From Oscillospiraceae bacterium (GTDB lineage: Bacteria; Bacillota; Clostridia; Oscillospirales; Oscillospiraceae), in the NCBI GenBank assembly GCA_017622995.1, contig JAGAQA010000008.1:38420-102419 (forward strand): a DNA stretch of 64,000 nt, written 5' to 3'. Within the stretch, counting starts at the first letter, position 1; every line of letters begins with the position of its first letter. A program made the translations under genes and the position numbers. The notes beneath the pieces were generated by a model. It ran no database searches. It saw only the letters and a list, made by a program, of their open reading frames with translations, and had not been told where the DNA came from. Shown piece by piece: positions 37,314-63,206 of the stretch.

Positions 37314-38063
37314 ATGAGAATCATCATTTCCCCGGCGAAGAAGATGAAGGTGGATACGGACAGCTTTCCATACCGTGACCTGCCAAAGTTTCTTACGAAT
37401 ACGGAGGAAATCTGCGGTCAGCTCCAGAGCATGTCCTATGAGGAACTGAAAAAGCTCTGGAAATGCAACGACCAAATCGCAGAACTGAATGTCCGGCGGC
37501 TGCGGGATATGGATTTGCTGGGCCGCCTGACCCCGGCGGTGCTGGCCTATGAGGGCATCCAGTATCAGTACATGGCTCCCGGCGTGTTCACGGATCGGGA
37601 ATACGCCTATATTCAGGAGCATCTTCGCATTCTGTCCGGGTTTTACGGCGTTCTGCGACCTTTTGATGGCGTGACACCTTACCGCCTGGAAATGCAGGCA
37701 AAGCTGAAGATAGGGGAGCGCAAAGACCTGTATGCCTATTGGGGGGACCGCCTGGCGCAGACCCTTTGTGCGGAATCCAACTGTATTTTGAATCTGGCGT
37801 CCAGGGAATACAGCATCTGCGTGTCCAAATACCTGCCGGATACGGCCCGATTCATCACCTGTGTCTTCGGCGAAGAAAATGATGGCAAGGTGATTGAAAA
37901 GGGAACCATGTGCAAGATGGCCCGGGGGGAGATGGTGCGCTTCATGGCGCAGTACCAAATCGAAAATCCGGATCAGATCAAGTCTTTTGACCGTCTCAAC
38001 TATCGCTTCGATGAATCCCGTTCGGATGACAGCACATACATTTTCCTTCATGACAGGACATAA
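37314..38063 (+). CDS. yaaA: Peroxide stress protein YaaA (DUF328)
   Basis: A 249-residue protein of the YaaA/DUF328 family, which protects cells from peroxide by limiting free iron. It starts RIIISPAKKMKVDTD and has the conserved FYGVLRPFDGVTPYRLEM and LASREYS segments. It is placed directly behind bcp, so the two functions agree. The family also contains DNA-binding members. It is the last clear core gene before the accessory region. Confidence 0.93.
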   Translation: MRIIISPAKKMKVDTDSFPYRDLPKFLTNTEEICGQLQSMSYEELKKLWKCNDQIAELNVRRLRDMDLLGRLTPAVLAYEGIQYQYMAPGVFTDREYAYIQEHLRILSGFYGVLRPFDGVTPYRLEMQAKLKIGERKDLYAYWGDRLAQTLCAESNCILNLASREYSICVSKYLPDTARFITCVFGEENDGKVIEKGTMCKMARGEMVRFMAQYQIENPDQIKSFDRLNYRFDESRSDDSTYIFLHDRT

Positions 38064-38604
38064 GAAGCTTCAAACCTCGCGAAGGTCTGTGAGACCATCC
38101 GCTTACAAGTTCTGACATTTACGACGTAAATGAGAACAAAAAAAGAACCGAAGAATGGCTACAGGCACTCGGGCTATAATTGCCGTCAGCAGTAACCAAA
38201 TTCAGTTCTATATAGAGAACACCAAATTCTGAGATTGAAGTCAAAGGGGAAATTGTAATTTATCAAAAATTTTTTTTAGATAATCGCGGTAAATTTGCAA
38301 ACAAAAACACCTCCCAATCAGGAGGTTTTTTGCTTGCCACAACAATCCTGAGAAACTGATGTGTGACAAATATTATTGGTGGAGCCGAACCGCTGCCGAT
38401 TTCGGAGGCGTGGGGGCACATTGCAGATGAATCCGATCCCAGCAGCCAACTGGAGGAGGGGATTGAGCAGACCAACCTCCGGAAGCTGCCGCTTTGTCAG
38501 GTGATTGTGCGAAATCCCCTCGGTCAGCTCTGGCTGGTGGGCAAGGATATTTTGCAAGGCCCGCGGAATGGCAGGTGAATGCATACGGCCTCTGAATCAT
38601 TATC
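38064..38604 (+). other. Gene-poor boundary region with a terminator and debris
   Basis: There is no convincing gene. A rho-independent terminator (ACCTCC / GGAGGT with TTTTTT) lies at 38305-38331. A 71-codon frame at 38363-38578 starts with GTG, has no ribosome site and resembles no known N-terminus; it may be debris of the gene whose remains follow at 38605. Composition becomes AT-rich around 38200-38300. This is the likely edge of the accessory region. Confidence 0.5.
38305..38331 (+). terminator. Rho-independent terminator
   Basis: Stem ACCTCC / GGAGGT around CAATCA, followed by T5, downstream of yaaA. Confidence 0.7.
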
Positions 38605-39288
38605 TTGACGGATGGCAATTATGCCAAGTGCTGGGTACGGGAGGATGACGATGTTTTCCTTTATAAGATCGGCAGCAGCCGTTATGAGGTGGAACCGCTG
38701 TCGGAGTTTCCGGCGGCCCAGCTGGCCGCCAAACTCTGCCCCAACTATATGGATTACTATTTAGATTTTTACCGGGGTAAGCTCATTAGTAAGTATCGGC
38801 TGTTCACCTCTGAGGAGCGGGGGCTTGCCAAGGCCGTAGCCACTTTTGGCGAGAAGCGCAACGTTCCCGTTATTCTTGATTGCTTTGACAAGCTTGGCAG
38901 CGGCGATGACTTCCGAAGAATGTGCGTTCTGGGTGCGCTGATTTTCAATCCTGACCGCCATTACGGTAACTTTGGCATTTTGTTTGATACCGAAACCATG
39001 GCTTCGATCTCCATGTGCCCGGTCTTTGATCATAACCGAAGCTTGTTCCCGGATTTGGATCAAGATCAGTTGGAGCGTCCAGACTGGTATATTGAAAAGC
39101 GCAAGTCAATGATCGGTAAGGATTTTCTTATCAACGCCCGTGAACTTATGACACCGGAAATCCGGTCAGACCTGAAGAATCTGCTTGGTTTCCGCTTCCA
39201 CCAACGTGACCGCATTACGGCACCTCAGGAGCGATTGAATGCGCTGAGTGCTATTGTGAATCATCAGATTAAGGCTATCATTGCGTAA
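38605..39288 (+). pseudogene. HipA/CtkA-like kinase, truncated
   Basis: A 227-residue frame matching the C-terminal part of HipA-like Ser/Thr kinases. The catalytic motif is ALIFNPDRHYGNFGILFD (the NxDRHxxN signature) and the metal-binding aspartate follows in CPVFDHNRSLFPD. The frame opens TDGNYAKCWVREDDDVFLYK, the first strands of the kinase, but starts with a TTG without a ribosome site. The usual HipB-type DNA-binding partner is absent. It may be a broken toxin or a short CtkA-like protein; the missing start favours a pseudogene. Confidence 0.65.
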
Positions 39289-39495
39289 ATGTATGTGCCT
39301 ACCGGCAGACACCATAGGTCAACAGAAATAATGCGTTGAATGCAATATTGTGCTTCACGCCGACCTATGATATCCTAAAGATGGAAAGAATAAGTATTGT
39401 TATTTATTTGCTCAAGAGTATAAAATCGGACGCTTCGAAAATTTAGCTGATGGCACAATTGAATATGTAGAAGAACAATTATAACACAAGAAGCG

Positions 39496-39534
39496 AGTCC
39501 GCCTTGATTTTGAGATCAAGGCGGATTCTTTATA
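39496..39534 (+). terminator. Terminator after a decayed frame
   Basis: Stem AGTCCGCCTTGAT / ATCAAGGCGGATT (13 bp, one wobble) followed by CTTTATAT. Confidence 0.65.
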
Positions 39535-39978
39535 TGTTCAAAATATATTGTTCCAAAGAAATTATCTTGTGGTTCCTCTAGAAAAAATTGGAGCATCTGC
39601 CCGGCGGGTATCCAGCTCAAGGATGGGAATTATGTTCAGGCATTTAGCCCTAGCGGAGGCAAGTGGGATTCAGAAAATCATCTATACACGAATGCGCAGT
39701 TCTTATTAAACATCATCCTTGCCCCTAGTCGGATTGGCGGTATGTATTCCTGTTCCAGTTATGAACTGAACGACAGGGGTATCGAATGGTGAAACCGTTC
39801 AATTACATTCCTTTTGAATGTGGATTTCTTTCTAAAGCAAATCAAGATATTTATTGATGGGTGGCTTATGTATTCGTATTGCGACAATGAGGACATAAAG
39901 GAAGAATGCTCTTTTGTGGAGATCACATTAGATTTGATGCATTTTGCTATTAAATGGATACAATTTCGGCTGTTTTCC

Positions 39979-40007
39979 TTGCAAAACTGAATATAGTCTG
40001 ATATAAT
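39979..40007 (+). promoter_or_regulatory. Promoter of the methyltransferase-GHKL operon
   Basis: TTGCAA (39979-39984), a 17-base spacer and consensus TATAAT (40002-40007), giving a leader of about 120 bases. Confidence 0.75.
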
Positions 40008-40134
40008 ATATGTTAATCATTTTGCATTTTTTCATGTAGTTGGTTGAGCTGCGAACAAACCACAGTCAAACCAAATGCGAGAATGTATTTTGTGTAAGCT
40101 CATAATTCCTATAAAAAAGAGGATGGATGAAATT

Positions 40135-41379
40135 ATGAATCTGGCGGAGAAACTTAATCAATATTCTAGAGAGTATTGGGATTTCCAAGATTACCGTAAA
40201 GAAGCCCCCCTGGTTCGATATCCCGCAATTATGGTTGCCCCGATGCAAGAGTGCATTCTCCGCGAAGTGATTAACGCAGATAGGTCGATAAAAAATGTTT
40301 TAGATCCGTTTGTGGGGTCTGGAACTGTTTTGGTCGAAGGTCAAAAACTGGGACTTGATGTTGTTGGAATTGATATCAATCCATTGGCAATCATGTTAAC
40401 ACAAGTTCAATTGGAGGGTGTTCCTGAAGACAAAATTGATAGACATAATGCGGAACTTTTTGCACGTATCGTGATGCTAAATGGCAATGTTGAACACCTA
40501 AACTTTACAAATGTAAAAAAGTGGTTTACAGATGATGTGATTGCTTCGTTGAGCGTTATTAGACAAGCAATCATGGGTGAATGTGATAGCAGAATAAGAA
40601 GGTTTTATTGGTGCTGCTTTGCGGAAACTGTAAAAAAGTACAGTAATACAAGAACATCAACTTTTAAACTACATATTAAAGATGAGGAACACATTGCCTC
40701 TCAGATTGATGATTCAATAGATTTTTTTAAAAACCATGTTATAGATCAATCAAAGCGGTATGCACGTGCTGACACATGCTTGTCTAAGCATTTCCTTGAT
40801 TGTGGGGATTCAAAAGATATTTTGAAAGAAATATCTTCCTGTTCTGTGGATTTGATTTGTACATCACCACCTTATGGTGATAATCATACAACAGTAACAT
40901 ATGGTCAATACTCTATATTGCCTCTTTTGTGGATAGACCCCAGAGATGTTGATTTGTGGAACCCGAACATATTAGAAACATTTACAGCGATAGACTCTCT
41001 AAGTTTGGGTGGACGGGTTAAACGTGGCGATAGCAAGAATTACTCAAAATATGTAGCGGACATTTCTGAGAATAAAAGAAAGAAAATCACCTCATTTTTT
41101 GAAGATTATGAAGCAGTTTTTTCACAATTAGCAAGAGTACTTAAACCGGGAAAACCCATGATACTAACACTTGGTAACCGACGTGTTGATAATCATGAAG
41201 TAGTGTTTGATAAGTTTAATGATGAACTAGCGGCAAAGTACGGTTTGGAAGTTGATTCTACAATTACAAGAAATATTATAGGAAAACGAATGCCCGGTAA
41301 AGTATCAAATCTGAAAGATGTGGGCTCCGTATCTTCAATTAGTACAGAATACATAAAAATATATAGAAAGGCAAAATGA
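40135..41379 (+). CDS. DNA methyltransferase (N4-cytosine/N6-adenine class)
   Basis: A 414-residue SAM-dependent amino-methyltransferase. Motif I is LDPFVGSGTVLVEG at residues 56-69 and the catalytic motif TSPPYGDN starts at residue 243; the SPPY form is commonest in N4-cytosine enzymes. About 180 residues between the motifs probably form the target-recognition part. Two starts are possible, ATG at 40123 and at 40135; the later one has better spacing from AGAGGATGG. It is AT-rich compared with the core, indicating transfer. The next gene, a GHKL ATPase, starts one base after the stop, so the two are cotranscribed. No restriction endonuclease is recognised nearby. Confidence 0.85.
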   Translation: MNLAEKLNQYSREYWDFQDYRKEAPLVRYPAIMVAPMQECILREVINADRSIKNVLDPFVGSGTVLVEGQKLGLDVVGIDINPLAIMLTQVQLEGVPEDKIDRHNAELFARIVMLNGNVEHLNFTNVKKWFTDDVIASLSVIRQAIMGECDSRIRRFYWCCFAETVKKYSNTRTSTFKLHIKDEEHIASQIDDSIDFFKNHVIDQSKRYARADTCLSKHFLDCGDSKDILKEISSCSVDLICTSPPYGDNHTTVTYGQYSILPLLWIDPRDVDLWNPNILETFTAIDSLSLGGRVKRGDSKNYSKYVADISENKRKKITSFFEDYEAVFSQLARVLKPGKPMILTLGNRRVDNHEVVFDKFNDELAAKYGLEVDSTITRNIIGKRMPGKVSNLKDVGSVSSISTEYIKIYRKAK

Positions 41380-41380
41380 T

Positions 41381-43258
41381 ATGGCGGAACAATTCCTATC
41401 CATGAGTGCAAAGGCAATTGCAAAAACTGTTGGTACTGTTGGTAGCCCGTTAGTTGTAATCTCTGAGTTGATAAAAAATGCAGTAGATGCATCAGCTACA
41501 GAAATAAATATCTTTTACGATGCAGAAGGGCGGACAATTACTGTCAGAAATAATCATAAGGGATTTTCTCATGCAGACATTGCTCTTCTGCATGAGCCAG
41601 GCGTTTCAAATAAAAAGACAGGAGAGAATCTTCAAAACGAAGCAGGAATGTTTTTGACAGGTAGCAAAGGACTCGGTTTATTATCTGTTTTTCTGCTGAG
41701 TCAAACTGCGGAAATTAAAACGGTTACAGAAGATCATTGTGTATACATAATTAGGTTGAATAAGGAAAATGGGAGTGTGGATTCTACTGTAACGCAAGAG
41801 AAGTCAGAAGATTTCTACACTGAAGTGATATTAAAAGATGTTGATTACGAAATAATTGCCCTCTTGTCATCTGAAAGTGAAATTAAAAAGTTAAGGCATA
41901 TTTGTACCTATTTGTATAAACCAGAATTACCGTTCCCTAACATGCTTTTGAATATAAAGGGACAAGGAAAAACTCAGATCAATTTTACATGCCCTTTCCC
42001 CAATATGTTATTTGATGTGAATTTTCACTATAATAAATACACACAACAGATTACTTTTCAATGTATTTCTCCAGCCAAAACGGTAAATGAAGATGAGATC
42101 GTTTTTTCTGATTTTTCTTTAGAAGCTCTCCAAGACAAAATGCGCACAGCCTACAAAATTAAAGATACAATACCAACAAGAACGAACGAGACGCCGATGG
42201 TTTCTTTCGAAGATGTGCCATCTTTTGAAGGAAGAATCTTAGTATATGAGAAAAAACTTGCGGGAGAGCGGTTAAAGACATATGGTGCCGGAGTGAATAT
42301 TTATGTGAACGAATACGCGCTATATAACTACCTTGCAGAGGAGAATGACTGGCTAGGATTGGCAGATTATTCGCAGCGTAAAAAAGTAACGCGTTTAAAG
42401 CCTCATAATGTATTTGGATATGTCAACTTCCCCGAATTTGATGAAAGTACTGAGAAGTTGAAGATTTCCAATGAGCGTGCAGATTTCATTCAAGACATGA
42501 CATTCCGCAAACTCATGTACCTAATTAAAGGGGTAATAATGTTTGCGATTTTTAATATTGATGTCGCGGACAAGAATCCAAAGTATAAAGAACATGATAA
42601 GGAACCAGAAACAGGTGATGAAGGCGAGAACGTGGAGGTTGAAGATACCACAACCCCTGCACAACAAGATAGTCAGAATTCTAGTTCAGATGATGGAGGA
42701 TATGGCACAACACGTTTTGATAGCGCAGGAATATCATCTACGCAAGAAAACGGAGATGATGAGCAGCCATATAAACCAGAGGAGGCATATGCTCCAACGC
42801 CAAATGCGAGAAGATGCCTTGAGTTTACTTCTAGTGAGGGAAAAGTAATTGCTGCTCTCAAAGGCACTGACAATTTGGGCGATAAAATCTATGGTCTTGT
42901 TTTTGAGTTGAGCCGTCTTGAAACTGATAAACATCGATATGCTGTTACATGTTTGTATCGTTCACTAATTGAAAGTGCAACAAAAAAATTTGCCTCAAAG
43001 TATAATCAGGTTTCTCTTGAATCAAATAATCTGGAAGCGTCGGTGATATGTGCTTTAAATTATCTTGGAAACCAAATCGGAAAGAATCCTAATGTCTCAG
43101 ACAAAAAAATAAAACAATGCCGCGAGACAGTGAAGAAAAGTAAAATAATAGATATTTTGAACGAATATATACATAATGAAACTGTCCCTGATGCTTTTAA
43201 AATACAAGAGTCTTGGAATACAATGAAAGAATATATAATGATGTGCTTGCTGGCTTAA
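41381..43258 (+). CDS. GHKL (Hsp90/MORC-like) ATPase
   Basis: A 625-residue protein with an N-terminal Bergerat ATPase fold: N box ISELIKNAVDAS (E29, N33), a G1-like NNHKGFS and a G2 loop GSKGLGLLSVF near residue 95. The normal DxGxG is altered here (N57 replaces Asp, H59 replaces the first Gly), which may weaken ATP binding. After a middle part of about 270 residues there is an acidic, Ser/Gln-rich linker (about 410-480), then a helical C-terminal domain (about 490-625) resembling no family I can name. It is directly coupled to the methyltransferase gene, suggesting a two-gene modification/defence module. Confidence 0.75.
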   Translation: MAEQFLSMSAKAIAKTVGTVGSPLVVISELIKNAVDASATEINIFYDAEGRTITVRNNHKGFSHADIALLHEPGVSNKKTGENLQNEAGMFLTGSKGLGLLSVFLLSQTAEIKTVTEDHCVYIIRLNKENGSVDSTVTQEKSEDFYTEVILKDVDYEIIALLSSESEIKKLRHICTYLYKPELPFPNMLLNIKGQGKTQINFTCPFPNMLFDVNFHYNKYTQQITFQCISPAKTVNEDEIVFSDFSLEALQDKMRTAYKIKDTIPTRTNETPMVSFEDVPSFEGRILVYEKKLAGERLKTYGAGVNIYVNEYALYNYLAEENDWLGLADYSQRKKVTRLKPHNVFGYVNFPEFDESTEKLKISNERADFIQDMTFRKLMYLIKGVIMFAIFNIDVADKNPKYKEHDKEPETGDEGENVEVEDTTTPAQQDSQNSSSDDGGYGTTRFDSAGISSTQENGDDEQPYKPEEAYAPTPNARRCLEFTSSEGKVIAALKGTDNLGDKIYGLVFELSRLETDKHRYAVTCLYRSLIESATKKFASKYNQVSLESNNLEASVICALNYLGNQIGKNPNVSDKKIKQCRETVKKSKIIDILNEYIHNETVPDAFKIQESWNTMKEYIMMCLLA

Positions 43259-43448
43259 CAGGCTTAAATATTTAATTATAATACATAGGAATCAGAATAA
43301 GAGCCTCCATTGAGAAGAAACACAGAAACAATAGGCACTGAGGGGTATCTCGGCATCTCCATGGTGAAGTAGCCTGCGAATCTTCAAGTAGGTGGTTTGT
43401 CTGTTTTCAGTACATAGCCATTTGCCTTACTGCAGGAATAGACTATGA

Positions 43449-43475
43449 GCAGGGCACGCTATTCCCGTGCCCTGC
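43449..43475 (-). terminator. Hairpin between the GHKL operon and the small leftward gene
   Basis: A 10-bp stem GCAGGGCACG / CGTGCCCTGC. It lies just after the stop of the leftward gene at 43484 and has no clear T run on either strand. Confidence 0.5.
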
Positions 43476-43483
43476 ATTGAGTA

Positions 43484-43738
43484 TTATAGGTCTTGCAAAT
43501 CCGCAAAAGGAATGTCATTCTCCAGATTATCCCTTGCCAGGTCTATATCAATGATTCCGTGAGCCTTGGAAATGGGCTTTTCATGCCACACTTTCTGATT
43601 TGCGCCGGTTGTTCCCGCGATGATAGGATTTACTTTCTCCTTGCCGCTTTTGGCTTTGCCCTGAATCTGGGGGACAGGGGAAGTCTCATTTCTCGGCCCA
43701 CGGGTCACATCGGGATGCTTCATACCTTTCTTTGCCAT
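43484..43738 (-). CDS. Small conserved hypothetical protein
   Basis: An 84-residue basic protein beginning MAKKGMKHPDVTRGPRNETS, with GKAKSGKEKVNPIIAGT in the middle and an acidic C-terminus. The ATG at 43738 has AGAGGTGAT upstream; the longer in-frame start at 43768 has no such site. Short proteins with this start are, to my knowledge, common in clostridial mobile regions, but no function is known. It shares orientation with the Fic gene (start 44973) and is separated from it by about 140 bases. Confidence 0.6.
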   Translation of the reverse strand: MAKKGMKHPDVTRGPRNETSPVPQIQGKAKSGKEKVNPIIAGTTGANQKVWHEKPISKAHGIIDIDLARDNLENDIPFADLQDL

Positions 43739-43875
43739 AATCATCACCTCTGCGCTAGTATTCCACATTGGGGATGGAGCATTCCTGAACGATAGCAGAT
43801 AGTCGGACAGAGTGAAAATACCGCATATAGCACGAAGAACGCACTGTCTTATTAATGGGCAGTACGTTCTTGTGG

Positions 43876-44973
43876 TTAATTGTAGGGAATATGCTGGTGA
43901 AGGTGGTAGATATAAGGCGCTTTGTTCGTATCTACGGTCAGATACCCTTTCTTGACAAGACTATTCAAAACGCTTCTTGCACCGCTTTCAGACATCTGCA
44001 GAATGCCAGCAGCCTTTTTCGTTGTGATTTCGGCATGGATACCTGTTTTGTTCATCCGTTCCAGCAGCTTTGATTCTGCTTCTGTAAGCGCATTTACAGA
44101 AAGGGCCGCATCGATCAGGCAGCGCTCAAAGGCATCCAGCATATAGGACACAAAGGGGGACAAGTCCAGCCATCTGTCATCGATTCCGTTCAGAACCGTC
44201 TCCGAGTCCGCAAGGCTTCCGTAGTATCCGCTGAGCTGATTGTTGATAGCACTGGACAGCGGCAGATTCTTCATCTTCCGATATCCGCCATGATATAGCT
44301 GGGAAGCATTCAAAATTCTAGCCGCTCTGCCGTTGCCATCACAGAAAGGATGCAGGTACACAAAATAGAAGTGTGCCACAAAGGAACGAACCAGTAAGTC
44401 AGAGTTATCTGCTTCCCGATAAGCAAACCACTGCGTCATCAGCTCTGGCAACTGCTCAGCCTGAGCCGGAACATGAATCACACGCTCCCCGGAACCGATA
44501 TAAACCATACCATCCCGATACAGTTTTCCGCGATGCTCCTCATTTTCGCAGACTCCGTCCACGATCTTCTCCCACAGCCTGCGGATGTTGTTCTCTGTGA
44601 TGGGATGGTTGTAGGCATAGTTGCTGCCGGCGATGGTATTGACAACCATGCGGTCATCCTTGGTTTTGGGATTTTCAAAATGATCCCGTACCCGCTGTAC
44701 CGTGGTTCTCGCACCCTCAATGGTGGCAGAGGACCAGGCATCCAGAAGGATGGTATCTTTTACACCCCGGTGTGCAGGAAGCTGATCATAAAGTGCATCC
44801 AGCTCTGCTGCCTTTTTCCGCAGCGCAGTAACCCCTGTCAGATACAGCTTCTCACCATTCAGACCCAAAAGAGGCAGTTCCATGCGGTCAGTCAATCTCA
44901 TATTCAATTCCTGCTGTGCACCTTCGATGTTGGCTCGCACACGATATTCCAGCTTTTGAATAGTATCCCACAT
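43876..44973 (-). CDS. Fic domain protein with self-inhibitory motif
   Basis: A 365-residue Fic protein, a class that transfers AMP or other phosphate-containing groups to target proteins. The active site is HPFCDGNGRAAR with catalytic H208; an inhibitory motif S82-ATI-E86-G lies N-terminal (class II architecture), so the enzyme controls itself and needs no separate antitoxin. The C-terminal ~70 residues (MNKTGIHAEITTKKAAGILQ onward) form a winged helix, as in SoFic-type proteins. The ATG follows AAGGAGGCG. Promoter TTTACA-17-TAAAAT is at 45006-45034. Confidence 0.93.
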   Translation of the reverse strand: MWDTIQKLEYRVRANIEGAQQELNMRLTDRMELPLLGLNGEKLYLTGVTALRKKAAELDALYDQLPAHRGVKDTILLDAWSSATIEGARTTVQRVRDHFENPKTKDDRMVVNTIAGSNYAYNHPITENNIRRLWEKIVDGVCENEEHRGKLYRDGMVYIGSGERVIHVPAQAEQLPELMTQWFAYREADNSDLLVRSFVAHFYFVYLHPFCDGNGRAARILNASQLYHGGYRKMKNLPLSSAINNQLSGYYGSLADSETVLNGIDDRWLDLSPFVSYMLDAFERCLIDAALSVNALTEAESKLLERMNKTGIHAEITTKKAAGILQMSESGARSVLNSLVKKGYLTVDTNKAPYIYHLHQHIPYN

Positions 44974-45136: not shown

Positions 45137-45976
45137 ATGGCAAAAACAAAGGTCATTGCCGTTGCCAACCAGAAGGGCGGCGTGGGGAAAAGCACTACGG
45201 TGTATAACCTGGGCGCTGGTCTGGCGATGCAGGGCAAGAAGGTTCTACTGCTGGATGTTGACCCGCAGGGGGACTTAACCAAAATGCTGGGATTGCGAAA
45301 ACCGAATGATTTGCCGCTGACACTGGGCAATGCCATGAACGACATCGTGGCGGGTGTCAGCGGCGGCGATCATCTCGAAATCTGCCATCATCACGAGGGC
45401 TTTGATTTCGTCCCCGGCAACCGTACCCTGTCCGCTGTTGAGGTAGGACTGGTGAATGTCATGAGCCGGGAGACGGTGCTGCGGCAGTATGTGGATCAGA
45501 TCAAAAAAGACTATGATTATGTTCTGCTGGATTGCCGCCCGTCTCTTGGTATGCTGGTCATCAATGCTCTGTCTGCATCGGATTATGTTCTCATTCCAGT
45601 TCAGGCAGAGTATTTTGCTGCCGAAAACATGACGGAACTGGTCAGCACCGTGCAGAACATTAAGCGGCAGATCAACCCCAAGCTGAAGATCGGCGGTGTG
45701 TTTATGACCATGGCCAACGAAACCAATTTCCGCAAGGACATTGTGGCGTCCGTCAAAGCCGCCTACGGCAAGCATCTGTGCTGGCCTTTATCCTGTGCTT
45801 TTTACTGTCTAACAAGGTGGTGCTATTCGCCCGGAGGTATGGAACCACAACACAATTACTGGAGCCGTTTATCTGGACATTTGGCGACAGTGACTCCATT
45901 TTGCTTGCATCCTTACTTTTGGTTTTCCTCTTTTCGGATATGCCCTTCCTTTCCAGCGGGACGCCATTTTACCTGA
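45137..45976 (+). pseudogene. ParA/Soj ATPase, truncated by a fusion junction
   Basis: Residues 1 to about 213 are a ParA-type partition ATPase: VIAVANQKGGVGKSTTVYNL holds the deviant Walker A, LLLDVDPQGDLTKML the A' motif, YDYVLLDCRPSLGML the Walker B region. At about base 45775, after AAYGKHL, the ParA match stops; the frame then runs 67 codons through the start of an ABC permease in the wrong frame. The C-terminal helices, including dimer and DNA contacts, are lost. GGAGGAAAC precedes the ATG, and an 11-bp hairpin (45085-45112) lies in the leader. No ParB is present. Confidence 0.8.
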
Positions 45977-46596
45977 TGCGGACAAGCAGGTCGATCTGGC
46001 TGATCGGCCAAGCAATTTATATTGTCGGTGCAACATCGCTGTACCTGTTGTTTGTGATGCTCTCCACAGCATTTGTCTGCATGGAAAACTCTTTTATCGG
46101 CAATCTATGGAGCCCAACGGCGGTTATGCTGGGTTTTTCCGACGCGGGAAAAGCGATTGCCGTTCCGGCAGCACAGAAAGCAATGGAAATGGTAACACCT
46201 TATGAATGCGCCGCGACCATTCTCCTTCTAATGCTCCTGTACAGCTTGCTGATGGCGTTCACCATGCTCCTGTTCCACCTTTGGAAAGGGCAGCTGGCAG
46301 GCATGGTAAGTGTTTTTGGCTTCAGCCTCTTTGGCTTCCTTCTTTCGCCGGATACCATCAAAACCATGCTGAAGCTGTCCGAGCAGGAAGGCTACGTTGC
46401 GAACATTATTGTCGGCTGGGTATCTCCCCTGAATCACGCTACCTTTCACATGCACAATTTCGGCTATGACAATTTGCCGAGAATGGGGGATACCCTTGTG
46501 ATCTTTGCCTTACTGATTGCACTGTGCTTTGGAATTTCTTTGAAGCTGGTACGAAATTACAGCTTCATTTTCACAGGAACGGAGGGAAATACATGA
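45778..46596 (+). CDS. ABC-2 type permease, probably lacking its N-terminus
   Basis: A 272-residue membrane protein with six or so hydrophobic segments (LAFILCFLLSNKVVLFARRY; LLASLLLVFLFSDMPFL; LIGQAIYIVGATSLYLLFVM; others). The frame opens with GTG exactly at the ParA junction, with no ribosome site of its own, so the first ~15-20 residues of the original permease were probably lost in the same rearrangement. It overlaps the ATPase gene (ATGA), showing that the two were a transporter pair, perhaps for a peptide or antibiotic export/immunity system. Function after truncation is doubtful. Confidence 0.65.
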   Translation: MLAFILCFLLSNKVVLFARRYGTTTQLLEPFIWTFGDSDSILLASLLLVFLFSDMPFLSSGTPFYLMRTSRSIWLIGQAIYIVGATSLYLLFVMLSTAFVCMENSFIGNLWSPTAVMLGFSDAGKAIAVPAAQKAMEMVTPYECAATILLLMLLYSLLMAFTMLLFHLWKGQLAGMVSVFGFSLFGFLLSPDTIKTMLKLSEQEGYVANIIVGWVSPLNHATFHMHNFGYDNLPRMGDTLVIFALLIALCFGISLKLVRNYSFIFTGTEGNT

Positions 46597-53936: not shown

Positions 53937-54467
53937 ATGATAAACACATATCTAAGAGGGGAATTGTACTACGCAGACCTGGGCACGGGGGTTGGTTCCG
54001 AGCAGAACGGCTATCGCCCGGTGGTCATCATCCAAAATGATGTGGGAAATCGGCATAGTCCCACCACCATTGTGGCGGCGATTTCCACGCAGATTAAGAC
54101 CAAGGCGAATCTGCCCACCCACTACCATCTGAAGCCGGGGAGCGGGCTTGTGCAGCCTTCCATGGTCATGCTGGAGCAAATCAGAACCGTGGACAAGACC
54201 CGATTGGTTCAGTACATCGGGAAGCTGTCTGACGGGGAAATCAAAGGGTTGAATCATGCGTTGGCCGTCAGCATCGGCCTGATTCCCACAACACCCGGAA
54301 AACTCACATTGTGCCTGTGCAGCACCTGCGCCGAGAACTTCTACGGCTCAGGTGCTTATTATTTGCGCCGGGTGAACCCCATCGAGGTTGAAAAGGAGCT
54401 GTGTACCTACTGTAACCAAAGGGCGGGTTTCGATTATGAAATTACCCCTCGCCATAAGAGCCGTTAA
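53937..54467 (+). CDS. MazF/PemK-type endoribonuclease toxin with cysteine-rich C-terminal extension
   Basis: A 176-residue protein. Residues 1-115 are a MazF fold: LRGELYYADLGTGVGSEQNG, YRPVVIIQND, TIVAAISTQ, SMVMLEQIRTVDKTRL. An added ~60-residue tail holds CLCSTCAENF and CTYCNQRAGF, four to five cysteines arranged like a zinc ribbon, not present in classical MazF. The ATG follows GGAGGT. No MazE-like antitoxin gene lies directly upstream; the next gene downstream is a 53-residue protein and then a serine recombinase. Toxicity is inferred from family. Confidence 0.82.
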   Translation: MINTYLRGELYYADLGTGVGSEQNGYRPVVIIQNDVGNRHSPTTIVAAISTQIKTKANLPTHYHLKPGSGLVQPSMVMLEQIRTVDKTRLVQYIGKLSDGEIKGLNHALAVSIGLIPTTPGKLTLCLCSTCAENFYGSGAYYLRRVNPIEVEKELCTYCNQRAGFDYEITPRHKSR

Positions 54468-54523
54468 GCTGGTTCGCACCTTTGTCAAAACATTCCCTTT
54501 TTTATAATATAAAGGAGGCAATC

Positions 54524-54685
54524 ATGCTAGTCTATACGATCCGAAAGAGTAATTTGTATGCGTCCGGCATTGAACCAACCCGTGAAGTTCTGGACATAGC
54601 CAGTGAAAATGAGAATGTGGATTTTGCCCTTGTCCTTGCAAAGATTCTCAGGGAACTGACAGCCCAGACCGGGAACATAACTTAA
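54524..54685 (+). CDS. Small hypothetical protein between MazF and recombinase
   Basis: A 53-residue acidic protein, LVYTIRKSNLYASGIEPTRE then VDFALVLAKILRELTAQTG. The ATG at 54524 follows AAAGGAGG. No known domain; it ends 13 bases before the recombinase start and is probably cotranscribed. It could be an antitoxin for the MazF-like protein or an accessory factor of the recombinase, neither supported by motifs. Confidence 0.6.
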   Translation: MLVYTIRKSNLYASGIEPTREVLDIASENENVDFALVLAKILRELTAQTGNIT

Positions 54686-54698
54686 GGAGTGAAAACAT

Positions 54699-56600
54699 AT
54701 GACAGTCGTTGAGCGGTTAAGAAACAGGGGAGTGACACCCAGAGCGGTTTTGTACGCCAGATTTTCGTCAGACAACCAGCGGGAAGAGTCCATTGAAGCC
54801 CAGCTCCGGGCCATGCACGAGTATTGCAGCCGGAATTCCATCGTAATTATCCATGAATACTGTGACCGGGCAAAATCCGCGACTACGGATGACCGTCCGG
54901 AATTTCTGAAAATGATTGCGGCATCCAGGGAAGGGGACTTCGACTTTGCCATCGTCCATAAGTTGGACAGATTCAGCCGGAACCGTTATGACAGTGCCTA
55001 CTACAAACGGGAGCTGAAAAAGAACGGAGTGCAGCTTTTGTCCGTTCTGGAGCAGATGGACGACAGCCCGGAAAGCATCATTCTGGAATCCGTGCTGGAG
55101 GGCATGAGCGAATACTACTCCAAGAATCTGGCTCGCGAGGTTATGAAAGGAATGAGAGAATCAGCTATGGACTGTCGTTACATTGGCGGCTGGGTGCCCT
55201 ATGGTTTTCGGGTAGACCCGCAGACCCACAGATATATCATCAATGACTATGAGGCGGAAGCAGTCAGAATGATCTTCCGGGATGTAGCCGATGGCTGCGG
55301 CTACAATGTAGTTTTGAACAAGCTGAATTCCATGGGCTACCGCACCCGGCTGGGCAATACCTTCTCCAAGGAAACACTGTATGAGATGCTGCGGAATGAA
55401 AAGTACAATGGCGTCTATGTGTTTAGCAGGGCGGCAAGCAAGGACGAGCTGGGGCGGCGGAACAATCACCTGGACAAGCCCATTGAGGATCAGATCCGTA
55501 TTCCCGGCGGGATGCCCAAAATTGTGGACGATGACACCTTTGCCCGTGTGCAGGCAATTCTCACCAGCAGAAAGCGCCACGGGCGGCGGGATGGGAAGCG
55601 GAAATATCTGCTGACCGGCATGGTATTTTGCGGCCTCTGCGGTCACAGATATTGCGGCGATTCGATGCAGACCGGGGGTGAAAAGAATCGAAGCGTGATC
55701 GGCACCTACTTCTGCAATAACCGGAAAAACCACGGTGCCCATGCCTGCAGCAACTCCAATATCCATCAGGAACCTTTGGAGGAGCTGGTGCTTCGGAAGA
55801 TTGAAGAAATCGTCTTTGATGAATCTCGGATTCCGGGAATCGTGCAGGCGTACCGGGAGCTGTGCCAGCAGGAGGATGGGACGGATAAAGAAAAGATTCG
55901 TACCCTTCGCCAGAATCTGAAAACCGTAGAGCAGAAAATCGCCAACATTGTCAATATCATTGCCAATACGGGCAGTGCTGCGCTGGTAACTCAGCTTACC
56001 CAGTTGGAGCGGGAGAAAGAGCTGTTGGATGTCCAGATTCAGGAAGAGGAACGGGATACAAAGGAAAATGATCTGGACGAGGAGGCAATCCGCGCAGCGT
56101 TCCGGCAGGCACAGAAAATGTTCCACAGCGGCACCTTGCCCCAGATGGAGCAGATCATCAACCTGTACCTGGACAAGGTTTTGGTGTACCCGGATTATGT
56201 GGAAATCCATCTGAACAATGTCCCTGACAACCTCCTGAATCCGTCTCAGACCATGGACAAACCCGCACTCGGCGGGTTACATACATTTTATATCGAAAAA
56301 ATGTGCGAGAAAAATGACCCCCAAAATCGCACAAGGGAAAAGGGCCAATATGGATATAATATTCTGGTGAAACTACATAGAATAGAACAAAAGAAGGCAA
56401 AATCCAGAAGAAAAGGGCAAAAAGAAACTCGAGCCCAAGACGGCTTGGACTCGAGTAAAACTGGTGGAACGGACGTAACCACAGCAGAACATAAATTTGT
56501 TCTGACTTTACCTGATTTTATGGACTTTTCGATCTTTTTTAGGGGAATATTTTCTGCGCTGATTTGCCCCTTTCCTCCGTTGATGATGATTGTAAGGTGA
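54699..56600 (+). CDS. Large serine recombinase (site-specific integrase)
   Basis: A 633-residue serine recombinase. The N-terminal resolvase domain has the catalytic serine in VLYARFSSDNQ (S23/S24), DRAKSATTDDRPEF and the arginine-rich HKLDRFSRNRYDSAYYK; the Recombinase domain follows (RYIGGWVPYGF; RNEKYNGVYVFSR), then a zinc ribbon (GLCGHRYCGDSM, CNNRKNHGAHACSN) and a coiled coil (about 385-470). The last ~90 residues (from KMCEKNDPQNR) are unusual, basic and not typical of the family; they cover a hairpin and run antisense to the tail of the second recombinase. It probably moves the element that carries this region. Confidence 0.92.
   Translation: MTVVERLRNRGVTPRAVLYARFSSDNQREESIEAQLRAMHEYCSRNSIVIIHEYCDRAKSATTDDRPEFLKMIAASREGDFDFAIVHKLDRFSRNRYDSAYYKRELKKNGVQLLSVLEQMDDSPESIILESVLEGMSEYYSKNLAREVMKGMRESAMDCRYIGGWVPYGFRVDPQTHRYIINDYEAEAVRMIFRDVADGCGYNVVLNKLNSMGYRTRLGNTFSKETLYEMLRNEKYNGVYVFSRAASKDELGRRNNHLDKPIEDQIRIPGGMPKIVDDDTFARVQAILTSRKRHGRRDGKRKYLLTGMVFCGLCGHRYCGDSMQTGGEKNRSVIGTYFCNNRKNHGAHACSNSNIHQEPLEELVLRKIEEIVFDESRIPGIVQAYRELCQQEDGTDKEKIRTLRQNLKTVEQKIANIVNIIANTGSAALVTQLTQLEREKELLDVQIQEEERDTKENDLDEEAIRAAFRQAQKMFHSGTLPQMEQIINLYLDKVLVYPDYVEIHLNNVPDNLLNPSQTMDKPALGGLHTFYIEKMCEKNDPQNRTREKGQYGYNILVKLHRIEQKKAKSRRKGQKETRAQDGLDSSKTGGTDVTTAEHKFVLTLPDFMDFSIFFRGIFSALICPFPPLMMIVR
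56436..56460. other. Hairpin inside the recombinase 3' end
   Basis: An imperfect inverted repeat ACTCGAGCCCAAG / CTTGGACTCGAGT, with an ACGG loop, lies in the tail region common to both convergent recombinase frames. It looks like a bidirectional terminator or an attachment-site feature that became part of a reading frame. Exact borders are approximate. Confidence 0.45.
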
Positions 56601-56773
56601 TCATCATACAGATACACGGAATGTACGAAGGTGTTGATGAGGATGCTTCGTTGTGCAGGATTCTTTCCGCAGTTGGTTTTTATGTAATCCAGATTAGCAA
56701 GAATTTGGGGATAAGAGAAGGTTCTATTCTTCTGTTTTTCGATTGTGAGCTGCTTTTCAATTTCCTTCTTTTC

Positions 56774-57961
56774 CTATTCACGTGCATCGATTCTCTTTGT
56801 AATCCTGTCCACGGATTGTCCGTGCTCCAATGCAGCCCACAGGTTTTCTAGGGCGTTCTCAACCTCTTTTAGTGCAGCTTCGAGTCTTTTGATGGATACC
56901 AGAGTACTATCATCTTGGCAGGCTTTATATAGCTCGTCAGCAATATATTTTATCCTCTCTTCCGTAAGTAAACTCATGCATACATCCACAACGGCATCCT
57001 CTATCGGTTCTTTGGGAACCGCTTTTTTATCGCATTTATGCTTCTTGGCATTGTTGCACATGTAGTAGTGATAATGCTTACCGCTTTTGCTGGTGCCACC
57101 ATATCCGGTCATTGGAGTGTTGCATTCACCGCAATAGAGTTTCGTCGTTAGGAGATACTCGTCTTTACCGCGAATCCTGCCGGGTGCAGCTTTGTTTTTC
57201 TCTATCAGATGTTGCACACGAAAGAACAGTTCGTCATCGATTATGCGGGGCATTCCACCGGGTGTCTCCGTTCCTTTGTAGAGATAGTACCCGATATAGC
57301 GCTTGTTATGGAGTATGCGACTGATGCTGTTCTTATTGAACTCTTTGCCACGGGAAGTGCGAATACGGCGATTATTGAGATCCCGGATAATGTCTGCTGT
57401 CACTTCACCGGACGCATACCGGTTGAAAATTTCACGCACAATAGCTGCCTCGTCCTCATCAATATAGAACCTACGATCCTTGTCCACTTTATAGCCAAGA
57501 CCGGGATTACTGCCATTGGAGAGGCACTTTTCTGCATTAAGCTGCATGCCACGGTTGATCTTCTGGGCAAGCTCAACGGAATAGTACTCGGCCATACTTT
57601 CCAGAACACCTTCGATGAGAATACCAGAAGCATCGTCTGTGATGTTCTCTTTAGCAGAGAGAACACGAACACCGTTCTTCTTCAGTTTAGCCTTATGGAT
57701 TGCACTGTCATACCGATTTCGGGCAAAACGGTCTAGCTGATAGACCAGTACAAATTGGAATGTTTTCTTTTCGCTATCCTGAATCATCCTTTGGAAGCTT
57801 TCGCGATTATCCGATGTTCCGCTCTGCGCCCGATCTATGTATTCACCGATTACAGTGTAATTGTGTGCTTTGGCATATTCATAACATACTCTCAGCTGGC
57901 CCTCAATCGACTGTTCCGTCTGGCTGTGACTGGAGAACCGGGCATAGATGGCAACATTCAT
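56774..57961 (-). pseudogene. Second large serine recombinase, interrupted by an amber codon
   Basis: The open part encodes 395 residues: VAIYARFSSHSQTEQSIEGQ with catalytic S10, VYQLDRFARNRYDSAIHKAK, the recombinase domain and a zinc ribbon (CGECNTPMTGYGG; MCNNAKKHKCDKKAV). At 56774-56776 a TAG follows DARE, but the same frame continues with the expected coiled coil and end (EKKEIEKQLTIEKQKN, YIKTNCGKNPAQRSILINTF, VYLYDDHLTIIINGG) to a stop at 56288. A single nonsense mutation therefore separates the last domain. GGAGGTAAAG precedes the ATG. It is convergent with the first recombinase and its full frame overlaps it by over 300 bases. Confidence 0.85.
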
Positions 57962-58971: not shown

Positions 58972-59844
58972 TTACCAATTAATATAGTCAATGCTAACAC
59001 CGGAACGTGAAACATAGTATTCCATATTTTCTTTTGCAGCATCCCCTCGATAATAAAAATCAATATGGTGTGCATATTTGACTATTTCTTGAATATAAAT
59101 GGCATCTTGGTCGCCACAGGACAAGCCCATGAAAACAACCTTATCATATTGTGGGATGGTGGAAAAAATGCTTTTGTAGTGCTTAAGTATTTCTGGACTG
59201 TTTTTATAGTACTGGTTGGCGGCCTGTTCCAACACATCATTTACAGCATTCCGGCACGTAGTATCTCTATAGTCAGAATGTTCGTCCTCTATAACGCATA
59301 GATAGTCTGGTTCTTGGTAAGCATTATGGCCTAAGATGATCTCCTGGCCAATGGTCCCGTGAATGTGATAAATTTTAATACCAGAAACATTGAAATTGTT
59401 TTCGATTGTTTGTGTATAATTAAAATTTACAATACAGTCTCCCTTTTTCGGTAAGAAATACCTATCTGGACGAATGGCTGTATCCATAGTCTTTATCCAC
59501 AAGTCGAATTGCTCTTTTAGAATGCGGATATATTGGTTGTAATATCCAACATTCCAAGCGGGACTATCCCAATATCCAGCACGATCGTCATCTGTTTCGG
59601 CATTATCCATTGCTTCGTTGTATATGTCATCAGCATAAAGTTGGGCAAAAACTGTGAGCATATCTTCAAATGTAGACCACCAGTGAACTTCGTTAACGTT
59701 GTATCCACGCTCATAAAACAGAGTGTCTATTTTATGCACCAATTCACCATATCCGTTGTCAAGCAAAAATATCTTAAAATCATAATAACTTGTAGGAAGC
59801 CCATAATGGCGGTCAAATCCATTTCCGATTATATAAAAGGTCAT
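58972..59844 (-). CDS. AbiH-family abortive infection protein
   Basis: A 290-residue protein with the AbiH signature at the start: FYIIGNGFDRHYGLPTSYYD. Later, DCIVNFNYTQTIENN, IKIYHIHGTIGQEIILGHN and VVFMGLSCGDQDAIYIQEI complete the family pattern; the GNGFD, HGT and GLSCGDQD blocks recall the nucleotide-binding layout of SIR2-like proteins. AbiH of Lactococcus causes phage abortive infection by an unknown mechanism. GGAGGCTTG precedes the ATG. The gene is AT-rich compared with the core and is followed by the cyclase-like gene. Confidence 0.88.
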   Translation of the reverse strand: MTFYIIGNGFDRHYGLPTSYYDFKIFLLDNGYGELVHKIDTLFYERGYNVNEVHWWSTFEDMLTVFAQLYADDIYNEAMDNAETDDDRAGYWDSPAWNVGYYNQYIRILKEQFDLWIKTMDTAIRPDRYFLPKKGDCIVNFNYTQTIENNFNVSGIKIYHIHGTIGQEIILGHNAYQEPDYLCVIEDEHSDYRDTTCRNAVNDVLEQAANQYYKNSPEILKHYKSIFSTIPQYDKVVFMGLSCGDQDAIYIQEIVKYAHHIDFYYRGDAAKENMEYYVSRSGVSIDYINW

Positions 59845-61700: not shown

Positions 61701-63206
61701 ATGAAGACAGAAAATTTACTATGCACATTTCAAGGGGCGGCCGCTATTGATTTGCTAACAGTGGATAAACACCTCAAAAAACTGAAAAGCCATGAAATAA
61801 GGAATCTAGAATCATTTTGCCGTATTATGAGTAATTATGGTTTTTTCTATAAAGATTATGACGGCTATTTTGTTTCTTATTCCATCAAACAAATTGGCAA
61901 AGAGTTTGATTTGCTACGATTTGGTGACGACTTGATCCTGAATATTGAACTTAAATGCGAGTTGAAGATTGCCAATAAGTTGGAAAAAATCAGAAAACAG
62001 ATGGAGATTAATCACTACTATCTTAAATTTTTGGGAAAACCAATTATCGTGATTACTTATGTAGAAAACGATGGTTTTTTTGTATATGATAGTACTGCCA
62101 ATACTATTAGCAGTATAGCAGAGAGTGATGTTGCTGAAATTATCAAAGCGCACACACCGAACCTTGCAATAGATCCCGACAAGGAATTCATTCCTTCCAA
62201 TTATTTGATTTCTCCCTTTAACTCTACTGAACAATTCATTAATGGAGAGTACTTCCTTACCACTACCCAGCAGAAAATCAAAACTGAGATTAAAGAGAAA
62301 TTAGAAACCGATAGATTTGTGTATTTTTGCATTGCTGCAAATGCTGGTACAGGAAAAACATTGCTGCTTTATGATATTGCAAAGGAATTTCTACAGGGTG
62401 GTACCAATGTGGTACTTATTCATAGTGGTAAACTTAATGATGGACATCGGAAATTGCAGGGAACATATGGCTGGAAAATGCATTCCATTGCATCGGTCAA
62501 TCAGAACACAACAAGCAGTTTACTGGATCCATGCGATATCTTACTCATTGACGAATCGCAGAGAATTAGTAATAGACAGATGGAATGGATTATTGAATGC
62601 AGCCAGCAAAAACAGATTCCGATTATCTTTTCTTATGATCCAAAACAGTATCTGCGTTCGGGAGAGGATAGGGACGTGCTAAGCTATTTGGAGACTAAAC
62701 ATCCAGATATTCCTGTATGTGCCAAGAAACTGACTACTAAAATTCGGACAAACAAGGAACTCGCATCATTTATCACAAATCTATTTGATATTGGTAGGAG
62801 TAAGGACCACCTCGATTATAGTTGTGTAACGATTGAGTACGTTGCTAATGAGAATCAGTTGAAAAACTATATTGCATATTTGCACCAAGATAGAGGCTGG
62901 CAACCAATTAAGTACACAACCTCACTGTACAACGAAGACCCCTTTGATAGCCTGGATGTAATAAGTGATAAAAATGCCCACGATGTTATAGGCCAAGAAT
63001 TTTCAAAAGTTGTGTTTGTCATGGATAGCAATTTTAGGTATGAAGGTAATCGATTGATGGCATCAAGGTATGCATATTATAGTCCAAAAGGTATGCTGTA
63101 TCAAATAACGACGAGAGTAGTCGACGAGTTAAAAATAATTGTGTTCAACAATCCGGAGCTATATCTTAAATTACTAGAAATCAAAGCGATGGATAATTCA
63201 CAGTAG
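61701..63206 (+). CDS. Nuclease-helicase with DUF2075 (Schlafen-like) ATPase
   Basis: A 501-residue protein. The N-terminal ~200 residues contain a PD-(D/E)XK-like motif, D70 in KEFDLL and E83-L-K85 in NIELK, suggesting a nuclease. The DUF2075 superfamily 1 helicase part follows: Walker A AANAGTGKT (216-220), Walker B LLIDESQR (D284, E285), motif III-like IFSYDPKQYL and the QEFSKVVFV segment before motif VI. The ATG at 61701 follows CAGAGGGA. Such nuclease-helicase fusions are typical of defence genes against phage. AT-rich, with its own promoter. Confidence 0.82.
   Translation: MKTENLLCTFQGAAAIDLLTVDKHLKKLKSHEIRNLESFCRIMSNYGFFYKDYDGYFVSYSIKQIGKEFDLLRFGDDLILNIELKCELKIANKLEKIRKQMEINHYYLKFLGKPIIVITYVENDGFFVYDSTANTISSIAESDVAEIIKAHTPNLAIDPDKEFIPSNYLISPFNSTEQFINGEYFLTTTQQKIKTEIKEKLETDRFVYFCIAANAGTGKTLLLYDIAKEFLQGGTNVVLIHSGKLNDGHRKLQGTYGWKMHSIASVNQNTTSSLLDPCDILLIDESQRISNRQMEWIIECSQQKQIPIIFSYDPKQYLRSGEDRDVLSYLETKHPDIPVCAKKLTTKIRTNKELASFITNLFDIGRSKDHLDYSCVTIEYVANENQLKNYIAYLHQDRGWQPIKYTTSLYNEDPFDSLDVISDKNAHDVIGQEFSKVVFVMDSNFRYEGNRLMASRYAYYSPKGMLYQITTRVVDELKIIVFNNPELYLKLLEIKAMDNSQ

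What the first reader, a model, noticed from the sequence alone, without database searches (positions are those of the whole stretch)
40135..43258. Two-gene module: SPPY DNA methyltransferase coupled to a GHKL ATPase
A complete amino-methyltransferase and an Hsp90/MORC-like ATPase lie one base apart behind one clear promoter, in an AT-rich accessory region. There is no recognisable endonuclease. None of the defence systems I know by gene content (BREX, DISARM, type I-IV RM, Gabija and others) has exactly this pair. It could be a modification-dependent defence system in which the ATPase is the effector or a clamp that senses unmodified DNA.
Basis: partly seen in the sequence, partly recalled or inferred. 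Interest (0 to 1): 0.8.

Follow-up and report, generated by a model that had tools for sequence, protein, structure and literature searches.

The report
Methyltransferase and GHKL-ATPase gene pair
Two neighbouring bacterial genes, one that probably marks the cell's own DNA and one that looks like a nucleotide-driven DNA clamp with an interchangeable tail, travel together in distant bacteria and probably form a compact defence against viruses, a new version of a design that others had already predicted.

Summary
In detail: a 414-aa amino-methyltransferase (40135-41379) and a 625-aa GHKL ATPase (41381-43258) lie one base apart in AT-rich accessory DNA. In 15 of 15 other loci with a related GHKL half (27-64% identical to this one where aligned), the same methyltransferase family is the adjacent gene. 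That family otherwise accompanies MvaI/BcnI endonucleases, but none was found in this genome. The ATPase ends in a tail module that is also the tail of PD-lambda-5 A, a ParB-like protein of a proven anti-phage system likewise paired with a methyltransferase. Tails have been swapped: alike tails sit on unrelated heads, and alike heads carry unlike tails. Nineteen aligned tails share one Arg and one His; a HEPN-like nature is a hypothesis, since the classical Rx4-6H motif is absent here and profile support is weak. Best reading: a methylation-guarded defence in which a nucleotide-gated clamp activates a swappable effector tail. GHKL proteins in restriction-modification neighbourhoods, some with C-terminal HEPN domains, were predicted in 2008 and 2013, so this is a new variant of a known kind. 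Function is untested; structure prediction could not be run.

The parts
40135..41379 (+). Amino-methyltransferase, 414 aa (in-frame upstream ATG at 40075); DPFVGSGT before TSPPY; related to MTases of MvaI/BcnI systems, predicted N4-cytosine
41381..43258 (+). GHKL ATPase with C-terminal swappable module, 625 aa
41381..41869 (+). GHKL nucleotide-binding domain (about residues 1-163; E29, N33, GSKGLGL conserved; G1 box N57-N58-H59-K60-G61 in place of DxGxG)
   Evidence: right boundary approximate
41870..42565 (+). Middle part (about residues 164-395), called transducer/S5-like by inference from the MutL/MORC layout; holds the conserved stretch NEYALYNYLAEENDWLGL..RKKVTRLKPHNVFGYVNFP
   Evidence: boundaries approximate
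42566..42775 (+). Acidic, low-complexity linker (about residues 396-465), variable among relatives
   Evidence: boundaries approximate
42776..43258 (+). C-terminal module (residues 466-625) shared with PD-lambda-5 A; R527 and H598 invariant in 19 aligned modules
39979..40007 (+). Promoter-like site TTGCAA-17-TATAAT (TG before the second hexamer), candidate promoter of the pair
   Evidence: number of such sites not above shuffles

Best explanation
A compact, mobile, methylation-guarded defence module. Step 1 (family shown, chemistry inferred): the MTase methylates a short site in the host chromosome, probably N4-methylcytosine in a CCNGG-like site as in MvaI/BcnI systems. Step 2 (inferred from the GHKL layout): the second protein is a dimer whose N-terminal domains close on DNA in a nucleotide-dependent way, like MutL, MORC and VcSduA. 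Step 3 (inferred): on incoming DNA that lacks the mark, clamp closure or persistence moves the C-terminal modules, joined by a flexible acidic linker, into an active pair. Step 4 (inferred; R527 and H598 the likely key residues): the tail, a helical and possibly HEPN-like effector, cuts RNA or otherwise stops the infected cell; in other members a different tail does this work. PD-lambda-5 would be the sister design, with a ParB-like head in place of the GHKL head and a D12-type MTase in place of this one.
For: The window's clade (with L009, L010, L013, L020) is found in both trees, 100/98 for the GHKL part and 100/99 for the MTase. The tail matches PD-lambda-5 A models; six GHKL tails against four ParB-type tails, profile to profile: 99.1%, E 7e-19. 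Tail swaps: L014/L028 heads 27%, tails 64%; L014/L012 heads 68%, tails no BLAST match; L013 tail 73-76% to ParB-type L056, heads without a match. R527 and H598 are the only invariant columns of 19 aligned tails. PD-lambda-5 affected plating or plaque size of all but one of ten phages (PMC9519451, section 7) and was called a compacted RM+Abi system (passage). Accessory setting: left-flank similarity to congeners ends at 38011-38047 in 5 of 5 usable regions; the ATPase was found in none of 100 other genomes of the genus (only 28 of the 101 at least 90% complete); PADLOC/Pfam hits for Fic, HipA-like and AbiH proteins nearby.
Against: No activity has been measured. The tail has no Pfam match at E<=0.1 in the 12 members scanned. 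Rx4-6H, the HEPN motif, is absent from 18 of 19 aligned tails, the window's included; only L050 has an Arg seven before the His. Similarity to DUF4145 (HEPN-like) is 27-30% probability for three tail sets but 0.12% for the GHKL tail set to which the window belongs, and an unrelated control reached 18%. The L014/L028 tails are tied to the other tails only through a PD-Lambda-5_A model: direct profile comparison gives 3-18%, so the two-residue invariance rests partly on a weak alignment. The two trees disagree in one supported place: L015 with L016 in the GHKL tree (99/95), L016 with L018 in the MTase tree (97/93). The window's clade has Asn in place of the adenine-contacting Asp, so ATP use is not certain. 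Structure could not be predicted.
Confidence: 0.5

Rival explanations
1. An unusual type II restriction-modification system: the GHKL protein is itself a DNA endonuclease, with nucleotide-dependent target cleavage done by the C-terminal part, as expected for the BbrUII/HgiDII restriction enzymes that have a GHKL N-terminus.
For: The NCBIfam BbrUII/HgiDII model hits the GHKL half of the window protein (E 3.1e-10) and of 5 of 7 other members scanned (best 2.3e-19). PADLOC REase_II models hit the same half. The MTase family normally serves true restriction enzymes.
Against: That similarity ends between residues 120 and 204 and is far below the model's cut-off (39-69 bits against 550). No nuclease family was found in the tail. 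The only invariant tail residues are one Arg and one His, not a metal-binding acidic set. The same tails occur on ParB-like proteins.
Confidence: 0.25
2. An addiction module for mobile DNA: the MTase acts as antitoxin, keeping the GHKL-tail toxin silent as long as the genome is marked; loss of the locus kills the cell. Phage defence is a by-product.
For: Accessory setting and sporadic spread, copies on viral contigs, swappable toxin-like tails.
Against: Not distinguishable from defence by sequence; the tail's presence in a proven anti-phage system favours defence.
Confidence: 0.15
3. Not defence: an epigenetic or repair pair in which the MutL/MORC-like clamp reads the MTase's mark to organise or mend DNA.
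For: MutL models hit the GHKL half (best E 5.9e-8); eukaryotic MORC proteins act in methylation-linked silencing (starts of abstracts).
Against: Sporadic accessory distribution, tail shared with PD-lambda-5.
Confidence: 0.1

Closest known systems
PD-lambda-5 (Vassallo et al. 2022, PMC9519451)
   Same: Two genes: a DNA methyltransferase and a two-part protein with the same type of C-terminal module; anti-phage activity shown for PD-lambda-5
   Different: Head is ParB-like (by eye and PADLOC model), not GHKL; MTase is D12 type (PD-Lambda-5_B hits in L050, L054, L056); in those loci A precedes B, here the MTase comes first
MORC/paraMORC GHKL proteins of restriction-modification neighbourhoods (Iyer et al. 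2008, PMC2292703)
   Same: N-terminal GHKL plus S5-like part, often a C-terminal extension, next to DNA methylases, in a minority without a helicase
   Different: Tails named there are RE-fold, TIR or an unknown domain with HxH; the tail here was not compared with them by profile
paraMORC with C-terminal Ymh HEPN domain in R-M neighbourhoods (Anantharaman et al. 2013, PMC3710099)
   Same: GHKL head, C-terminal HEPN-type tail, R-M context, proposed analogue of PrrC/RloC
   Different: No Ymh (PF09509) match at E<=0.1 in the 12 members scanned; Rx4-6H motif not present in the window's tail
BbrUII/HgiDII family restriction enzymes (NF050001)
   Same: GHKL N-terminus
   Different: Similarity restricted to the first 120-204 residues and far below cut-off; their MTase partners were not looked at
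MvaI/BcnI restriction-modification systems
   Same: Methyltransferase family (27-30% identity)
   Different: No MvaI/BcnI endonuclease in this genome; the partner is a GHKL protein
VcSduA, Shedu with GHKL head (PMC12137116)
   Same: GHKL head on a C-terminal effector in phage defence
   Different: Effector is a PD-(D/E)XK nuclease (DUF4263); the word 'methyl' does not occur in the paper's main text
TmtA models of PADLOC
   Same: GHKL half hit in 11 of 12 members by PDLC03968
   Different: Models of 1300-1780 positions, matched only in the nucleotide-binding part

Membership tests
PD-lambda-5 | ParB-like N-terminal head in protein A | tested here: not met
   Head is GHKL; PD-Lambda-5_A models align only from residue 396 onward
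PD-lambda-5 | C-terminal module of protein A | tested here: met
   PDLC03998 E 7.1e-11, PDLC04013 E 4.7e-10; hhalign 99.1%, E 7e-19
PD-lambda-5 | D12-class methyltransferase B (PD-Lambda-5_B models) | tested here: not met
   No PD-Lambda-5_B among the best 25 of 62 families listed, so any match is weaker than E 2e-7, against 1e-88 to 1e-123 for true B proteins. Caveat: Pfam MethyltransfD12 does pass its cut-off over residues 43-110 (23.6 against 22 bits), the shared SAM-binding part
RM-associated GHKL (MORC/paraMORC) | N-terminal GHKL with intact motifs plus S5-like part, in a neighbourhood with a DNA methylase | tested here: inconclusive
   GHKL and methylase neighbour met; S5-like part inferred only; G1-box Asp is Asn in the window's clade; which paraMORC family it would be was not tested
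paraMORC-Ymh HEPN | C-terminal Ymh (PF09509) domain | tested here: not met
   No PF09509 match at E<=0.1 among the families listed for 12 members
HEPN RNase | Rx4-6H motif | tested here: not met
   Absent in the window and 17 other of 19 aligned tails (Leu or Phe at H-5 in 17, Ala in L014 and L028); L050 alone has Arg at H-7. An Arg invariant in all 19 lies about 70 residues upstream of the His
HEPN RNase | All-helical HEPN fold | not tested
BbrUII/HgiDII restriction enzymes | Match above the NF050001 cut-off (550 bits) | tested here: not met
   39.2 bits, residues 26-149 only
Type II R-M of MvaI/BcnI type | MvaI/BcnI endonuclease (PF15515) with the MTase | tested here: not met
   No PF15515 match in the genome at E<=0.001; the same search finds it in two plasmid records used as positive controls
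Any anti-phage system | Reduces phage plaquing | not testable with these tools
   Needs experiment

The most novel reading that the evidence does not exclude
GHKL and ParB-like heads are interchangeable nucleotide-gated DNA clamps that read the absence of a methyl mark and fire one common pool of swappable, metal-independent R/H tail effectors: a class of restriction without a DNA endonuclease. In the window's clade the head may even have changed its nucleotide (Asn57 in place of the adenine-contacting Asp, in all 5 members seen).
Probability: 0.3. Interest if true: 0.8.

Novelty: new variant of a known kind. Interest (0 to 1): 0.55.

Why it matters
If true, it links the proven PD-lambda-5 system, for which I saw no mechanism in print, to the MORC/paraMORC ATPases through a shared, exchangeable effector. 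It makes testable whether GHKL and ParB-type clamps do the same job in telling self from non-self DNA, a question that also bears on where eukaryotic MORC proteins came from. It would also let annotation tools recognise such pairs.

Tried and rejected
Single-sequence scans of genome contigs and viral contigs with the ATPase found nothing; the profile scans gave 11 and 4 loci. These scans start from short exact peptide patterns, so they are not exhaustive. A viral-contig scan with the MTase profile gave one locus, on the contig already known as L020. tblastn of the ATPase in plasmids and phages: no match. tblastn of the MTase in phages: 3 records, all at 22%. PDB by sequence: only MutL/Mlh1 N-domains below E 0.05 for the ATPase; the tail profiles gave nothing meaningful. 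DUF5677 as the tail's family (hinted at E 0.014 in L050) was rejected: probability under 1% in five comparisons. DUF4145 is not established (see evidence against). An MvaI/BcnI endonuclease elsewhere in the genome was rejected. The HEF_HK/Response_reg_2 elements of PMC8011034 (abstract and outline read) were considered and not followed as the closest relatives: the weak hits L022/L023 (22-23%) look like them by eye. Passages of PMC12629846, PMC12839542, PMC4081073 and PMC10799925 were read without finding this pair.

Rows dropped or not used before counts: L022 and L023 (weak, other architecture) and L005/L027 (tail only) are not among the 15 GHKL loci; L002, L003 and L004/L026 are second copies of L009, L011 and L017; L087 (G301) was found through the MTase and is not counted among the 15. 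Left out of the tail alignment: L013, L018, L019 (contig ends), L053 and L057 (incomplete), L087 (not added), L090 (found later). Left out of the trees: L019, L022, L023, L026, L027. Of 37 plasmid records with a related MTase I read the neighbourhoods of 8. Of 12 genomes hit by the PD-Lambda-5_A model, I fetched regions of 8; G049 was already held, the window and G165 are GHKL types, and G240 was not looked at. Of 6 congener flank regions asked for, one came as 613 bases and was not compared.
Full report
What is there. Two complete genes on the + strand, 40135-41379 (MTase, 414 aa; an in-frame ATG at 40075 gives 434 aa) and 41381-43258 (ATPase, 625 aa), one base apart. G+C is 36.6% and 37.0% against 56.4% in window 1-38047. 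A promoter-like site lies at 39979-40007, but such sites are as common in shuffled sequence.

The methyltransferase. DPFVGSGT precedes TSPPYGD by about 180 residues, the order of alpha-type amino-methyltransferases (class name recalled). Pfam N6_N4_Mtase E 2.3e-15; MethyltransfD12 just over its cut-off in the SAM-binding part. PADLOC type II MTase models cover nearly the whole length at E 1.2e-64 and 2.4e-62. tblastn in 72,556 plasmid records finds 37 records. Of the 8 neighbourhoods read, 4 (L046-L049; MTase identity 27-30%) have an annotated MvaI/BcnI endonuclease beside the MTase or one small gene away. Two (L043, L045) have a larger GHKL-type protein (828 and 842 aa) followed by a third gene, and two (L042, L044) have hypothetical genes. 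So the family is that of MvaI/BcnI modification enzymes, and N4-cytosine methylation of a CCNGG-like site is the likely chemistry (inference). PF15515 was not found in the window's genome, while the same search finds it in two plasmid controls.

The ATPase. HATPase_c_3 E 5.2e-9, found in 12 of 12 proteins of alignment A3. E29, N33 and the GSKGLGL box are kept (L021 has GNKGLGL; five have GSKGLA). The G1 box is DxGxG in 10 of the 15 proteins in the motif table but N[N/D][H/Y]KG in the other five (window, L009, L010, L013, L020), which are one clade in both trees. In GHKL proteins that Asp contacts the adenine (recalled), so ATP use in this clade needs testing.

Co-occurrence. Searches with the ATPase: 391 genomes of the class, 6 hits including the window; 398 of the phylum, 2 hits (overlapping sample); 101 of the genus, only the window's own (28 of the 101 at least 90% complete and clean); 84,980-species collection by profile, 11 loci; viral contigs, 4 loci; 82 genomes of another class, 1 hit. 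Distinct loci with a related GHKL half other than the window: L009-L021, L028, L090, that is 15. All 15 have the MTase as the adjacent gene on the same strand, overlapping by a few bases or at most about 60 apart; in L028 the ATPase gene comes first. L028 is related over about its first 110 residues only. Hits not in this count: L022 and L023 (22-23% identity; by eye, a Dcm-like methylase two or three genes downstream) and L027 (tail only). Reverse test: the MTase in 382 genomes of the class gives 8 genomes at E<=1e-30. Six have the ATPase beside it (window, G165, G281, G141, G054, G301), one (G229) has a gene resembling MvaI/BcnI endonucleases (by eye, first residues only), and one (G337) has neither.

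Trees. The window's clade and, in the MTase tree, L011+L012+L014 are well supported. The GHKL tree has few supported forks and disagrees with the MTase tree in one supported place (L015+L016 at 99/95 against L016+L018 at 97/93). So the pair mostly, not wholly, shares a history.

The tail. PADLOC scores the window's tail as PD-Lambda-5_A (E 7.1e-11), and many PD-Lambda-5_A models hit tails of the family (12 members scanned). L014 and L028 hit a different model, PDLC03996, at 1.7e-13 and 9.6e-20. Six GHKL tails against four ParB-type tails: 99.1%, E 7e-19 over 130 columns; against four other GHKL tails (L015, L016, L017, L021): 75%, E 2.5e-5. The L014/L028 pair of tails scores only 3-18% against the other sets directly. 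Of nine regions with ParB-type PD-lambda-5 A proteins (L027, L050-L057), L050, L054 and L056 have an MTase that PADLOC calls PD-Lambda-5_B; L052 and L055 have one by resemblance. L027, L051 and L053 instead lie by radical-SAM-like genes and, for L027 and L053, Hsp90-like genes (by eye); L057 is cut off.

Swaps. L013 and ParB-type L056 share 73-76% identity over 85-94 residues of the tail, with no match between heads; L013's head is 59% identical to the window's. L014 and L028 have tails 64% identical and heads 27%; L014 and L012 have heads 68% identical and tails without a BLAST match. The window and L027 (ParB-type) have tails 36% identical over 163 residues. Heads and tails therefore recombine, between GHKL proteins and between GHKL and ParB-type proteins.

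Possible active residues. Nineteen aligned tails (12 GHKL, 7 ParB-type) have two invariant columns, R527 and H598 of the window protein; four before the His stands Asn in 14 and His in 5. The HEPN Rx4-6H motif is absent in 18 of 19; L050 has an Arg seven before the His. DUF4145 proteins show a like pattern (R..E and N...H, sequences), but profile support is weak: 27-30% for three tail sets, 0.12% for the window's own set, 18% for one unrelated control. I call the tail HEPN-like only as a hypothesis.

Setting. In 5 of 5 usable congener regions, similarity from the left flank ends at window 38011-38047, after a YaaA-like gene (named by eye), and neither gene of the pair is found in the fetched 4-20 kb. 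In one of them (L073) similarity returns at 43448-43772, just after the pair, and at a few places beyond, as if 38047-43448 were a slot for variable cargo. To the right lie Fic, ParA-like, PemK, two serine recombinases and AbiH genes: an accessory region.

Mechanism. Shown: gene pair, families, conservation, tail exchange. Shown on an alignment that is weak in part: the invariant Arg and His. Inferred: self-marking by the MTase, clamp closing on unmarked DNA, activation of the tail. ParB proteins form CTP-gated and GHKL proteins ATP-gated DNA clamps (recalled); that both carry the same tails beside a methyltransferase is the main reason to think that the heads do equivalent jobs.

Known or new. 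GHKL proteins in R-M neighbourhoods (PMC2292703; passages and section 5) and GHKL with C-terminal HEPN in such neighbourhoods (PMC3710099; passages) are predicted kinds. VcSduA (PMC12137116; passages) has a GHKL head on a defence nuclease. PD-lambda-5 (PMC9519451; outline, passages, section 7) is proven; PMC10799925 (passages) repeats the RM/Abi view. I saw no description of this pair or of tail exchange with PD-lambda-5 in the listings of paper searches (no result) and 109; most subscription papers and preprints are outside that library.

Noticed in passing
window 41546-41563 (residues 56-61 of the ATPase): Clade-specific replacement of the GHKL G1 box DxGxG by N[N/D][H/Y]KG in 5 of 15 proteins, while E29/N33 and the G2 box are kept; possible change of nucleotide.
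   Followed up: partly
L027 6045-11292, L051 6295-9521, L053 5600-12450: PD-lambda-5 A-like ParB proteins next to radical-SAM-like genes and, in L027 and L053, Hsp90-like GHKL genes (by eye): perhaps another defence cluster.
   Followed up: no
L043 3842-9227 and L045 4833-10655: Related MTase followed by an 828-842 aa GHKL protein and a third gene; in L045 the GHKL protein has a second HATPase domain near its C-terminus. Resembles the HEF_HK/Response_reg_2 elements of PMC8011034 (abstract read) but with an amino-MTase.
   Followed up: partly
window 38047-43448 against L073: In one congener similarity ends at 38047 and returns at 43448, just past the pair, which suggests a slot for variable cargo.
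   Followed up: partly
window 58972-59844 (-): AbiH abortive-infection protein (Pfam E 2.8e-37).
   Followed up: partly
window 43876-44973 (-): Fic protein matching PADLOC SoFic (E 1.9e-44), next to the pair.
   Followed up: partly
window 38605-39288 (+): HipA-like protein, PADLOC PDC-M03A (E 1.2e-12; Pfam HipA_C below cut-off), upstream of the pair.
   Followed up: partly
window 45137-45976 (+): ParA-family gene whose last part does not look like ParA and overlaps another ORF (45778-46596); perhaps cut off by a rearrangement (by eye).
   Followed up: no
window 53937-57961: PemK/MazF-like toxin and two large serine recombinases on opposite strands: mobile-element remains.
   Followed up: partly
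window 61701-64000: Schlafen-type helicase-like ORF (61701-63206) and an MtlR-like protein starting at 63490 and running off the window.
   Followed up: no
L042 6440-9851: Lactobacillus iners plasmid: 40% identical MTase followed by three genes without an NCBIfam match at E<=1e-4 (the first without a Pfam match either), a possible unrecognised effector set.
   Followed up: no
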